Shown here: positions 13,262-31,519 of the stretch, one piece after another
Numbering within the stretch: the first letter of the stretch is position 1
Layout of the letters: each line of letters starts with the position of its first letter
IMG/VR virus record: IMGVR_UViG_3300022841_000510
Location: 1 to 58,056 of that record
DNA length: 58,056 nucleotides
Reading direction: 5' to 3' (one strand)
DNA from: a virus
Position numbers and translations under genes: made by a program
Notes under the pieces: generated by a model
The model's input: only the letters and a program-made list of their open reading frames with translations
Databases searched by the model: none
What the model was told of the DNA's origin: nothing

Positions 13262-14875
13262 TTAACCTAGCATTAGTTCTTCTGGCGAACCTTCCTTTGT
13301 TGGTGTAATAGTAGGTTCGTCTGCTACTACTGCTTCGGTTAGCATAATTGTACCTGCTACGGAAGATGCATTCTCTAAAGCAGTCCTAGTTACTTTAAAA
13401 GGATCAATTATACCTGCTTCCTTCATATTAACAACTTCTTTATCGTATACATGGTAACCGTACCAAGGTCCCTTAGCTACTACATCTTCTATTATCGTCT
13501 CAATCTCGCTTTGTTCGTATCCTGCGTTAGAGAGTATTTTAATAAAAGGTGCTTGACATGCTTGCTTAACTATACTTGCTCCTGTAGAAGTTTTAAGTAT
13601 ACTTCGACTTGCATGTAGTAATGCTGCTCCACCTCCAGGTACTATTCCTTGTTCAATTGCTGCTCTGGTAGCATGTAAAGAGTCTTCAACTCTATCTTTA
13701 GTCTCTTTCATTTCTAATTCAGAGTTACCTCCTACATGTATGATAGAAACTCCGCCAGTAAACTTACCTAAGCGTTCTTGTAGTTTTTCAGTTTCAAAAG
13801 GAGACTTAGAATGATCTATTTGTAATTTTAATTCATCTAGTCTTTTAGCTATATTATCAGCTTCTCCTTTACCGTCTATAATGATAGTATTCTCTTTCAT
13901 TATATTTGCTTTTCTTGCTTGACCGAACCAGGATTTATCTAACCTACTTAGCTTCATACCTTTTTCCGGACTAATTACCTGTCCTCCGGTTAATATAGCT
14001 ATGTCTTCCATAATAAGCTTTCTACGGTCCCCAAAGTCTGGTGCTTTTACTGCTACTACTTTTAAAGTACCTCTCATCTTATTTACAATCAAAGTCGCTA
14101 ATGCTTCGTTATCAATATCCTCACATACTATTAACAGAGATTTGTTCTCTGATGATACATATTCTAATACTGGTAGGAGGTCTTTAGCTTGTGATAGTTT
14201 CCCATCGTATATTAAGATGTAAGGTGAGTCTAAGATTGCAGACATCGATGCATTATCACTAACAAAGTATGGAGATTTATAACCCCTATCGAATTGAATA
14301 CCTTCTACAGTTTCAAGATAAGTTTCTCCTGTCCTTGATTCTTCGATAGTTACAATACCGTCTCTCCCCACTGCTTCTAAGGCTGATGTAATAAGATTAC
14401 CTACCTCTTCGTCATTGTTGGCAGACACTGTGGCAACCTGCTTTAACTGCTCTTCTGATGTTATCTCTGTAACTACATTCTCTTTAAGGTACTTCATAAC
14501 CTTCTTCACTGTTTCATCTAGCTCTCTTTTTACTTGTACTGCATTCTCTCTCTGATCTAAAGCGTTCAACCCTTTAGTAGTTATTATCTGAGCTAGTAAT
14601 GTTGCTGTAGTTGTTCCGTCTCCTGCTGTATTAGCAGTGTTAATTGCAACCTGCTTTATCATATCTATCGCTATAGATCTAACAGGGTCGCTAAACTCTA
14701 TTACCTTTGCTACTGTTACACCGTCTTTAGTAGATCTAACTTCTCCAGTCTCGTCTCTATACACTACGTTTCGACCATTCGGACCTAAGGTAGCGGTTAC
14801 TGCATTTGCTAGTAAGTCAATACCGTCAAGTAGTTGCTTCCTAGCTTCGTTTGAATATTTTATGTGTTTGCTCAT
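13262..14875 (-). CDS. groL: GroEL chaperonin (Hsp60), phage-encoded
   Basis: A full-length 537-aa chaperonin. The ATPase motif GDGTTTATLLA contains the catalytic aspartate equivalent to E. coli D87, and RVEDSLHATRAA contains the D398 equivalent. The apical segment RGYKSPYFVSDN with PVLEYVSS matches the hydrophobic substrate/GroES-binding surface. GIVPGGGAALL is conserved. The C-terminus ends PEELMLG without the usual Gly-Gly-Met tail, so the cavity tail is absent. It follows GroES by 3 nt, as in bacterial groESL operons. It may fold phage virion proteins or replace the host chaperonin. All key residues I checked are intact. Confidence 0.97.
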   Translation of the reverse strand: MSKHIKYSNEARKQLLDGIDLLANAVTATLGPNGRNVVYRDETGEVRSTKDGVTVAKVIEFSDPVRSIAIDMIKQVAINTANTAGDGTTTATLLAQIITTKGLNALDQRENAVQVKRELDETVKKVMKYLKENVVTEITSEEQLKQVATVSANNDEEVGNLITSALEAVGRDGIVTIEESRTGETYLETVEGIQFDRGYKSPYFVSDNASMSAILDSPYILIYDGKLSQAKDLLPVLEYVSSENKSLLIVCEDIDNEALATLIVNKMRGTLKVVAVKAPDFGDRRKLIMEDIAILTGGQVISPEKGMKLSRLDKSWFGQARKANIMKENTIIIDGKGEADNIAKRLDELKLQIDHSKSPFETEKLQERLGKFTGGVSIIHVGGNSELEMKETKDRVEDSLHATRAAIEQGIVPGGGAALLHASRSILKTSTGASIVKQACQAPFIKILSNAGYEQSEIETIIEDVVAKGPWYGYHVYDKEVVNMKEAGIIDPFKVTRTALENASSVAGTIMLTEAVVADEPTITPTKEGSPEELMLG

Positions 14876-29531: not shown

Positions 29532-30713
29532 CTACGAAGAAAACGTAGAAAGTTGTGAGAATTTCTTAGAGAGTTCTTTTTTATCGAAACTATCCATAAG
29601 GTTAAAAGACTTAGCATTACCAGGAGCTGGTGTGTCATCATAGGTAGGTACATCTTCTGTAAGCTCAATGTGTCCGTTAGAGGTGTCCATCTTTGCTCCA
29701 AACGTCATACCGTCCATCCCGTATCTATTTTTCATAATATGAACTCTACCTGTTCCATTTAACTTATCTTCTTTCTTCCTTGATAAGGACATGCAGAAGT
29801 CGGAAACCATTATCTTATCGTAAGATCCTGCTGCTTTGTCTCCTTCAATTATATCATCCTTAGCTCCCATTCTGTTTACTTGTGAAGGTGATATGATAGG
29901 TATTTTAAGTTCCTTTGCTAGACCTTTACATGCTACGTATACATCATCTATTTCATCTTTCCTCTCTGCAAACTTACTACTCACATTTCCTCTTAGGTAA
30001 TCGATATAGTCTATAATTACAAGGTCTGGTTTTAGTTCTGAGTCTGTGCATTTTTGTAAGTGAGCTCTTATTGTAGATACCGATGCCATCTTAGGCGGAT
30101 ACTCTTTAATTATAAGCTTTCCGGGAAGTGATTCTACCATACCTTCTACCTTAGTTCTATGGTCTGCTATATGTTCGATATCTACCCCTGTTAAGTAACA
30201 ATCAACCCTTTTTCCTACGTAGTCTTCTCCAAGTTCTAGAGTATAATATACTACGTTGTAACCTAACCGTACTGCATGAGCTGCCATTGCTACCATAAGC
30301 CATGAGTTATGAGATAGTATTCCGTTACTATAATAACAATGTACATCCACTACAGAAAGGTCGTAGAGTACTTCCTCTTTTTTATCCTTAGTTTGTTTTG
30401 TTAAGGTAGTTGTTCCGGTTTCTGTTATAACTAAATCTTCTGAGGTTATCTCATCAGCCATTACCCAGTCTCTATTCTCTGTCTTGAATTGGTGTTTACC
30501 TGATGTTTGTATGTCTGTACCGTTACTGAAGTAGCTTCTTACTGAGGATTGTCTTTCTGTTGTGAACAGAGTCATTATAGGTTTATAACCGTAGGGGGTT
30601 TTAACTTTTATATCGAACTCAGGAAGGTAAAGGTTATTTTGATAAGGTTCTACCCCTAGTTTAAAGAATAGATCTCCAATCTTAATCTTACGTGTTTTAA
30701 TTCTTACTTTCAT
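29532..30713 (-). CDS. Replicative DnaB/gp41-type helicase, C-terminal half with C-terminal split-intein fragment
   Basis: A 393-aa product. Residues 1-136 are intein: KIGDLFFKLG (11-20), block B SGKHQFKTENRDWVMADEI (71-89), block F YDLSVVDVHCYYSN and the end LSHN, with H135-N136 followed by S137 as +1 extein residue. From S137 the helicase continues: SWLMVAMAAHAVRLGYNVVYYTLELGED (after the Walker A lysine), LVIIDYIDYL Walker B, SPSQVNRMGA (sensor/arginine region). The other half, ending in the N-intein, is the gene just upstream, 11 nt away. An in-frame TAA directly precedes this ATG, so the break is not a simple frameshift. Trans-splicing would restore GGGK-S, a full Walker A. Confidence 0.9.
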   Translation of the reverse strand: MKVRIKTRKIKIGDLFFKLGVEPYQNNLYLPEFDIKVKTPYGYKPIMTLFTTERQSSVRSYFSNGTDIQTSGKHQFKTENRDWVMADEITSEDLVITETGTTTLTKQTKDKKEEVLYDLSVVDVHCYYSNGILSHNSWLMVAMAAHAVRLGYNVVYYTLELGEDYVGKRVDCYLTGVDIEHIADHRTKVEGMVESLPGKLIIKEYPPKMASVSTIRAHLQKCTDSELKPDLVIIDYIDYLRGNVSSKFAERKDEIDDVYVACKGLAKELKIPIISPSQVNRMGAKDDIIEGDKAAGSYDKIMVSDFCMSLSRKKEDKLNGTGRVHIMKNRYGMDGMTFGAKMDTSNGHIELTEDVPTYDDTPAPGNAKSFNLMDSFDKKELSKKFSQLSTFSS

Positions 30714-30724
30714 TTATTTATAAC

Positions 30725-31519
30725 TTATTTAGTTTTATTATCTTCTATGTACCCAAAGATCTTAGCCATTTGCCATCCGTATAAATGGTTACCGTCGATA
30801 TTAAACTCATCCCAAGGCTCTACCCACATAGTTATTTCTTCTCCGTCATTATTAGTTATAGGTAAACCGTATTCAGGATACTCTATTTCTATGGTTGAGT
30901 CATACCCTAAGCATTTACCTCCTCCTGGGTTTCCGAAAACTATACCTAAGTCTCCAGGTCCGAAACCACCTTGAAGTATATTATTAATATCTGGCCACGG
31001 TGTTGGTATAGTAGGTCTTGAATCTTCTCTGTATCGTGTTTCTATATCTTTATTGTACTCGTGTCCGATATTCTTATCAGTACCTGCTTTTAATGCGCTA
31101 TCTATTAGGAATCTAATACTATCATACTCTCCTATGTTAAGCAAGTCTACAGAATCCAAAAGAGCTCCTTTTAGTTTTTGATTCTTACAGAAAGTAGTGA
31201 ACTCTTCCTCTACGTATGCTAACTCAGCATCTGAATGTCTATATGCTTCTTTTAACTGTTCCCTAATGGATGTTTGAAGTATTTCATTCTCTAGCTTTTT
31301 AACCTCTATGGTTAGTATCTCCATAGATATTACTGTATGGTATTTATGCCAGTACTTAAGTATCTGATTTATTACCCATTTGTGTGCTGGATTAGGAAAG
31401 TGTTCGTCTGTTAATATATCGTTTATATTTTGAATAAACTCTTTCTTTGAGAGTAGTGCTCCTATCGCTTTTACTTGGAACACCGGACCGTAGTCGGATA
31501 ATACTTTTAATGCTGCCAT
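30725..31519 (-). CDS. Replicative DnaB/gp41-type helicase, N-terminal half with N-terminal split-intein fragment
   Basis: A 264-aa product. Residues 1-202 are the helicase N-terminal domain (helical) and start of the RecA-like ATPase, ending GNPGGGK (196-202), most of Walker A. C203 begins an intein N-fragment of 62 residues: CLGYDSTIEIEYPEYG is block A, followed by an acidic stretch (NNDGEEITMWVEPWDEF) and a tail ending EDNKTK. There is no block B or homing endonuclease here; block B is in the partner gene. The acidic N-part and basic C-part start suggest charge-driven association. The insertion at the Walker A lysine/serine junction is the known gp41/DnaB intein site. Confidence 0.9.
   Translation of the reverse strand: MAALKVLSDYGPVFQVKAIGALLSKKEFIQNINDILTDEHFPNPAHKWVINQILKYWHKYHTVISMEILTIEVKKLENEILQTSIREQLKEAYRHSDAELAYVEEEFTTFCKNQKLKGALLDSVDLLNIGEYDSIRFLIDSALKAGTDKNIGHEYNKDIETRYREDSRPTIPTPWPDINNILQGGFGPGDLGIVFGNPGGGKCLGYDSTIEIEYPEYGLPITNNDGEEITMWVEPWDEFNIDGNHLYGWQMAKIFGYIEDNKTK

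What the first reader, a model, noticed from the sequence alone, without database searches (positions are those of the whole stretch)
29532..31519. Replicative helicase split into two genes by a mini split intein broken at an unusual point
The upstream gene ends in 62 residues after GNPGGGK that start with C203 and the block A segment CLGYDSTIEIEYPEYG. The downstream gene begins with 136 residues ending LSHN, then the +1 serine S137 and the rest of the ATPase. Joining the parts restores GGGK-S, the Walker A. The two genes are 11 nt apart in different frames, each with its own stop (a TAA directly precedes the second ATG), and no homing endonuclease separates them. KIGDLF and block B are both in the C-fragment, so the split falls before the point where most known split inteins (gp41-1 type) break. 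The acidic N-part and basic C-part favour pairing. Trans-splicing is inferred.
Basis: partly seen in the sequence, partly recalled or inferred. Interest (0 to 1): 0.88.

Follow-up and report, generated by a model that had tools for sequence, protein, structure and literature searches.

The report
Phage helicase built by split intein
In this uncultured phage the engine that unwinds DNA for replication is encoded as two separate proteins that must apparently be stitched together by a split intein at the exact ATP-binding loop; it belongs to a previously unlisted family of such inteins in which the gap between the halves holds, or once held, a homing endonuclease gene.

Summary
ORF 30725-31519(-) carries the N-half of a T4-type DnaB helicase ending GNPGGGK plus a 62-aa intein N-fragment. 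ORF 29532-30713(-) carries a 136-aa C-fragment ending SHN, then Ser+1 and the rest of the ATPase. Intein-free relatives show one clean 608-bp insertion between the Walker A Lys and Ser codons. At least 16 distinct relatives carry the same intein: most have an I-Bth0305I/Vsr-like endonuclease gene between the halves, some are split without it (as here), four are contiguous. The window's intein is sister to endonuclease-bearing ones, while its helicase is sister to an intein-free one: a mobile "fractured gene" without its endonuclease. The break lies between beta2 and alpha1 of the Hint fold, the known S1 position (VidaL, PolB16), so it is not unprecedented. What differs is a conserved ~40-residue arm on the N-fragment; a confident AlphaFold model of a contiguous homologue shows it as a small subdomain with the fracture at its tip. 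Purifying selection on both halves implies function; trans-splicing itself remains inferred. New variant of a known kind. By-product: endonuclease-bearing relatives carry a copy of the target P-loop abutting their late promoter, like the I-TevI operator.

The parts
30914..31519 (-). N-extein: residues 1-202 of the DnaB-like replicative helicase, ending in the Walker A GNPGGGK
   Evidence: phrog_19 positions 167-366, E 1.8e-28; 57.9% identity over residues 1-202 to the intact helicase of Flavobacterium phage immuto
30725..30913 (-). Intein N-fragment (62 aa + stop): Cys1, block A strands (CLGYDSTIEIEYPEYG, the equivalent of the 16-aa VidaL N-fragment) plus a conserved arm (MWxxPWxEFNIDGxHLYGWQ)
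   Evidence: alignments A2 and A4; empty-site boundary; arm folds as a subdomain in the model of contiguous homologue L093
30714..30724 (-). 11-nt spacer GTTATAAATAA between the half genes; in HEG-bearing relatives 750-1260 nt holding the endonuclease gene
30306..30713 (-). Intein C-fragment (136 aa): KIGDLF helix alpha1, block B His74, blocks F/G ending SHN
   Evidence: VidaL E 7e-5, profile E 2.5e-10; intein_Cterm; 52-68% identity to homologues
29532..30305 (-). C-extein: Ser+1 (Walker A Ser) and the rest of the RecA-type ATPase, 257 aa
   Evidence: phrog_19 positions 367-595, E 4.4e-43; DnaB_C E 5.3e-15
30306..30913 (-). Whole insertion (608 bp) relative to intein-free relatives L004/L005, exactly between the Lys and Ser codons
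   Evidence: empty-site alignment, flanks 86% and 84% identical

Best explanation
This is a naturally split class-1 intein in the P-loop of a phage DnaB-type replicative helicase. The two ORFs are translated separately. The 62-aa N-fragment (beta1-beta2 plus an arm subdomain) docks on the 136-aa C-fragment (return strand, alpha1, the rest of the Hint fold) and rebuilds a VidaL-like Hint domain. Cys1 makes the thioester, Ser137(+1) takes over the N-extein, and Asn136 cyclises with help of His135. This ligates GNPGGGK to SWLMVA and produces an intact, about 459-aa helicase; neither half alone has a complete Walker A. The element is a fractured-gene selfish element (split intein plus I-Bth0305I/Vsr-like homing endonuclease between the halves) whose endonuclease has most likely been lost here; the split intein persists because the phage needs the spliced helicase. 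Shown: anatomy, homology, empty site, alternative alleles, incongruent trees, selection. Inferred: docking, splicing, dependence of the phage on it.
For: Seamless helicase profile join 366|367; clean 608-bp insertion versus L004/L005; C-fragment and family profile match VidaL; contiguous alleles L093, L098, L101, L107 at the same site show both fragments form one intein; model of L093 intein pLDDT 93.3, pTM 0.88, best PDB match VidaL (TM 0.85 on VidaL length); HEG ORFs between halves in L002, L003, L015, L017, L094, L099, L100, L103, L105, L106, L108, Vsr/I-Bth0305I-like; HEG C-terminal remnant in the spacer of L008; intein tree WIN+L002+L003 99/99 versus helicase tree WIN+L004 (intein-free) 100/100; dN/dS 0.02-0.22 for both fragments, including the HEG-less pair L006/L008 at 0.09; catalytic Cys1, block-B His74, His135, Asn136, Ser+1 conserved.
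Against: No splicing or expression data. The N-fragment by itself hits no intein HMM. The structure was modelled on a contiguous homologue, not on the window's two chains. Charge complementarity is one-sided. The block F His is not invariant (F in L002, N in L008). No HEG remnant survives in the window, so loss rather than never-had rests on the tree and on L008.
Confidence: 0.92

Rival explanations
1. The break is an assembly or sequencing error, or a decayed pseudogene, and the real gene is contiguous (cis intein).
For: Contiguous alleles exist at the same site.
Against: Same arrangement in contig L082 and in many relatives with spacers of 10 to about 960 nt; both halves under purifying selection.
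Confidence: 0.02
2. One polypeptide is made from the two ORFs by programmed frameshifting, ribosomal bypass or stop readthrough, and the intein splices in cis.
For: Spacer of only 11 nt; 10-12 nt in L102 and L135.
Against: Spacers differ in length and sequence and are about 900 nt with a gene inside in sister loci; C-ORFs of the family begin with ATG and a short conserved lead; no shared slippery motif seen.
Confidence: 0.04
3. The intein halves no longer splice; the helicase halves assemble non-covalently or another helicase is used.
For: No functional data; the window is a fragment, so a second helicase elsewhere cannot be excluded.
Against: Splicing residues intact and fragments under purifying selection; Walker A is cut exactly between Lys and Ser, and a P-loop intein disrupts ATPase function in RadA (PMC6195587).
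Confidence: 0.03
4. The split P-loop intein is kept as a conditional switch that ties replication to splicing (for example redox), rather than as a relic of a selfish element. This is compatible with the best explanation and concerns why it is kept.
For: Precedent: P-loop DnaBi1 of mycobacteria is a redox-responsive splicer (PMC6195587); Cys1 is the nucleophile here.
Against: Nearest relatives do without the intein; the patchy, horizontally moving distribution is explained by homing alone.
Confidence: 0.08

Closest known systems
VidaL split intein (PDB 6vgv)
   Same: Best sequence and fold match; break between beta2 and alpha1 (S1), 16-aa block A equivalent; in its own phage loci it also sits in a Walker A (UvsX GESG|SGKS), with a Vsr-like HEG between the halves (L116) or only a remnant of one (L118), and with a contiguous relative (L120)
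   Different: Different host gene and exact site; VidaL N-fragment is 16 aa without the arm; about 29% identity
AceL-TerL / GOS-TerL (S2 atypical split)
   Same: N-terminally shifted natural split; the Cat consensus structure 6dsl is also matched
   Different: Broken after helix alpha1 (N-fragment 25-37 aa; PMC13014065, PMC11766414); here alpha1 (KIGDLF) is in the C-fragment
gp41-1 / gp41-8 / NrdJ-1 (S0 split)
   Same: Phage-type split inteins, gp41 also a DnaB-type helicase; gp41-1 structure matched at E 1e-4
   Different: Broken at the homing-endonuclease position (N about 100, C about 40 aa; PMC11923092); other helicase sites (from memory, not checked)
Fractured genes with free-standing Vsr/I-Bth0305I-type endonuclease (Dassa 2009; known to me by title and memory only)
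   Same: Sister loci have this arrangement; endonuclease fold nearest I-Bth0305I 3r3p
   Different: Window lacks the endonuclease; P-loop helicase site, arm, and mixture of cis, split and HEG alleles
Mycobacterial DnaBi1 (P-loop DnaB intein)
   Same: Same P-loop position, P-loop Ser is the +1 residue (PMC6195587)
   Different: Contiguous class 3 mini-intein in bacteria

Membership tests
Class 1 intein (Hint domain) | Cys/Ser1, block B His, C-terminal His-Asn, Cys/Ser/Thr +1 | tested here: met
   C203; H74; H135-N136; S137, invariant across the seven close homologues
Class 1 intein (Hint domain) | Hint fold | tested here: met
   Model of contiguous homologue L093 (pLDDT 93.3), best match VidaL; not modelled for the window's own two chains
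Naturally split intein | two fragments fused to the two halves of one host protein, encoded by separate genes | tested here: met
Naturally split intein | protein trans-splicing activity | not testable with these tools
   no experiment; purifying selection only
Atypical S1 split (VidaL, PolB16) | break between beta2 and alpha1 | tested here: met
   alignment with VidaL and natural VidaL loci; KIGDLF aligns with VTVQEL
Atypical S1 split (VidaL, PolB16) | short N-fragment (about 15-35 aa) | tested here: not met
   62 aa here, 45-74 aa in the helicase family
Fractured gene with free-standing Vsr-type HEG | endonuclease gene between the two half genes | tested here: not met
   11-nt spacer in the window; met in sister loci L002, L003 and others
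T4-type DnaB replicative helicase (phrog_19) | DnaB N-domain, RecA-type ATPase with Walker A | tested here: met
   synteny recA-exonuclease-helicase-RNR shared with phage immuto

The most novel reading that the evidence does not exclude
The conserved arm on the N-fragment is a dedicated association module that lets a split at the tip of an S1 insertion pair specifically and fast, and trans-splicing across the P-loop is used by the phage as a checkpoint on replication. The endonuclease of the family represses itself by binding a copy of its own target placed at its late promoter, so the intein, the nuclease and the host helicase form one timed circuit, from which this phage has kept only the splicing part.
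Probability: 0.12. Interest if true: 0.75.

Novelty: new variant of a known kind. Interest (0 to 1): 0.52.

Why it matters
The family gives, at one insertion site, the states contiguous, split, and split with a homing endonuclease, several of them in close relatives, so how inteins become split (and perhaps re-fuse) can be followed step by step. It adds naturally split inteins with a new geometry (N-fragment about 60 aa with its own subdomain) as candidates for orthogonal protein ligation tools, and it puts an essential phage enzyme fully under the control of trans-splicing. No isolate phage in the collection searched carries it.

Tried and rejected
(1) Nucleotide-level search for a duplicated insertion site across whole spacers gave almost nothing (one hit, p 0.02); only a protein-level test near the N-fragment stop was informative. 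(2) The TATAAATA in the window's spacer was considered as a promoter for the C-half and rejected: the enriched motif of this phage on the gene strand is TATTTATA, and the spacer sequence is not shared by other HEG-less members. (3) Bacterial genomes: no relative of the C-fragment. (4) Isolate phages: only distant Serratia TerL inteins, 28-30% identity. (5) Dassa 2009, Burton 2020, Bachmann 2015 and Neugebauer 2017 are not in the library, so exact published gp41 sites could not be checked. (6) No second intein found in the window by tblastn. (7) Nei-Gojobori dS is saturated for several pairs; those values were not used.

Full report
What is there. The window is a 58,056-bp record of an uncultured virus with tail sheaths, family A DNA polymerase, gp32-like SSB, RecA-like protein, GroEL and ribonucleotide reductase. 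Two minus-strand ORFs, 30725-31519 (264 aa) and 29532-30713 (393 aa), are separated by 11 nt and lie in different frames. Against phrog_19 (DnaB-like replicative helicase) the first matches positions 167-366 and the second, from residue 137, positions 367-595. So the helicase is complete once the 62-aa tail of the first and the 136-aa head of the second are removed. The nearest isolate, Flavobacterium phage immuto, has the same gene order (recA, exonuclease, helicase, ribonucleotide reductase) with one uninterrupted helicase gene, and its similarity to the window's first ORF stops exactly at residue 202.

Insertion site. Intein-free relatives L004/L005 are 86% and 84% identical in the two flanks. 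The alignment shows a single 608-bp insertion (+ strand 30306-30913) between GGTAAA (Lys) and TCA (Ser), that is, inside the Walker A motif. P-loop insertion with the P-loop Ser as +1 residue is known for mycobacterial DnaBi1 (PMC6195587).

Intein identity. The C-fragment matches intein models and, in the PDB, VidaL first (E 7e-5; family profile E 2.5e-10) and gp41-1 second. Cys1, block B His74, His135-Asn136 and Ser+1 are invariant in close homologues. The N-fragment alone matches no NCBIfam model, but contiguous homologues (L093, L098, L101, L107) have the equivalent residues in one ORF with the C-fragment. AlphaFold2 of the contiguous L093 intein (34-row alignment) gives mean pLDDT 93.3 and pTM 0.88. 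Foldseek returns VidaL first (TM 0.85 on VidaL length) and then other inteins.

Where it is broken. Published natural atypical breaks lie after beta2 (S1: VidaL, PolB16) or after alpha1 (S2: AceL-TerL, GOS-TerL) (PMC13014065). In the native VidaL loci recovered here (L116, L117; host gene UvsX, Walker A GESG|SGKS) the N-fragment is 16 aa (CLPKEAVVQIRLTKKG) and the C-fragment begins just before VTVQEL. The window's first 16 intein residues and its KIGDLF are the equivalents, so the break is S1 in kind. The difference is 46 additional residues on the N-fragment (39-46 in close homologues; consensus ExYGLxLVNxxGxxYTMWIxPWEEFNIDGxHLYGWQV), with W30, P33, W34, F37, D40 and HLYGWQ (43-48) of the intein invariant in seven homologues. 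In the model these form a small beta/alpha subdomain (strands 33-38, 43-46, 49-52, helix 53-60), followed by the strand 65-75 that leads into alpha1 (76-82). The fracture falls between helix and strand. The family is therefore split at the tip of an arm inserted at S1.

Relatives and history. In 11 distinct helicase relatives (L002, L003, L015, L017, L094, L099, L100, L103, L105, L106, L108) an ORF of about 240-340 aa lies between the halves, and L130 has it after the N-fragment. It has a Ros/MucR-like zinc finger in most members and a Vsr-like nuclease domain (PDB profile hits 1odg/1vsr E 1e-4; nearest fold I-Bth0305I 3r3p, E 4.7e-3, TM 0.69 on target; the model is moderate, pLDDT 77). Others are split without it: window (11 nt), L135 (10 nt), L102 (12 nt), L006 (41 nt) and L008 (108 nt, with a fragment, CFWESDWKSRKQEIILELK, resembling the nuclease C-terminus). 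On the intein tree the window is sister to nuclease-bearing L002/L003 (99/99) and L135 to nuclease-bearing L094 (100/100); at least 7 changes of nuclease presence and 5 between contiguous and split are needed. On the helicase tree the window is sister to intein-free L004 (100/100) and nuclease-bearing L003 to intein-free L023 (99/89): the intein moves between phages. The same intein kind also sits in a different ATPase, apparently gp46/SbcC-like, at its P-loop (L112-L115; host assignment by eye from the sequence). Counts of changes do not give direction; loss of the nuclease in the window is inferred from its position and from the L008 remnant.

Function. Nei-Gojobori dN/dS where dS is not saturated is 0.02-0.22 for both fragments, including the nuclease-less pair L006/L008 (0.095, 0.09) and window versus L002 (N-fragment 0.20) or L003 (C-fragment 0.13). 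Decaying fragments would not show this. With Walker A cut between Lys and Ser, neither product can be a normal ATPase, so trans-splicing is the most economical reading; it has not been shown. The C-half has no Shine-Dalgarno sequence, but only 3 of 44 large ORFs in the window do, in keeping with the flavobacterial nearest isolate, so its ATG is an ordinary start for this phage.

Known or new. Natural split inteins, S1 breaks, fractured genes with Vsr-like endonucleases and P-loop inteins are each known. The combination here (helicase P-loop family with an arm-bearing N-fragment of 45-74 aa, and all allelic states at one site) was not found in 50,697 isolate phage records nor in GTDB genomes, nor in the papers searched. 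I could not read Dassa 2009 or the VidaL papers, so prior listing of some members from metagenomes cannot be excluded.

Side result. In this phage TATTTATA is strongly enriched within 45 nt before ORF starts (9 of 14 sites, 0.55 expected), mainly in the structural gene region, and looks like its late promoter. It also precedes the endonuclease start in L002, L003, L130, L015, L017 and L094. In the first five, a copy of the target P-loop abuts it: in L003 AATCCCGGTGGGGGTAAGTCT encodes NPGGGKS and differs from that locus's own site at 6 of 21 bases, all third codon positions; in L015 and L017 the copy is on the opposite strand. P-loop-like matches close to the N-fragment stop exceed shuffles in 11 of 17 endonuclease-bearing loci, but in none of the four endonuclease-less ones without a remnant (window, L006, L102, L135). 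Against real DNA windows of the same loci the strongest (L002, L003, L130, L015, L106, L108) remain unmatched, while the weaker ones do not stand out. I-TevI has such an operator over its late promoter, 15/20 identical to its homing site (PMC2988022). An autorepression operator is the likely reading here, untested, and it concerns relatives rather than the window.

Noticed in passing
L003:1597-1660, L002:3061-3120, L130, L015, L017 (upstream of the endonuclease ATG): A copy of the homing target (P-loop, e.g. NPGGGKS with only third-position differences in L003; on the opposite strand in L015 and L017) directly abuts a TATTTATA promoter motif of the endonuclease gene; absent in members without the endonuclease. 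Looks like an I-TevI-type autorepression operator.
   Followed up: partly
window, sites upstream of ORFs starting at 2671, 18334, 32999, 43469, 45842, 46859, 47454, 48085, 55158 (-): TATTTATA within 45 nt before ORF starts, strongly enriched (9 of 14 sites; 0.55 expected): probable late promoter of this phage group, the reverse complement of the T4 late motif TATAAATA.
   Followed up: partly
L099:3205-3241, L106:3030-3063, L108:3014-3047: N-fragments of divergent relatives end in an in-frame P-loop-like GxGKT[TSM] tail resembling their own host P-loop.
   Followed up: partly
L112-L115: Related split inteins with an ORF between the halves in the P-loop of another ATPase, apparently gp46/SbcC-like; N-fragment only 29 aa ending KKLGFxPxELK or similar.
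   Followed up: no
L116-L120: Native VidaL loci: host gene UvsX at GESG|SGKS; endonuclease between the halves (L116, L117), only its C-terminal remnant (L118), and a contiguous relative (L120).
   Followed up: partly
window 13262-14875 (-): Phage-encoded GroEL chaperonin, phrog_5725 E 6e-148.
   Followed up: no
window, whole: Only 3 of 44 large ORFs have a Shine-Dalgarno-like sequence; with the immuto relationship this suggests a Bacteroidota host.
   Followed up: no
L101, L107: Contiguous alleles nested among endonuclease-bearing split ones on the intein tree: possible re-fusion of a split intein, or independent fractures.
   Followed up: no
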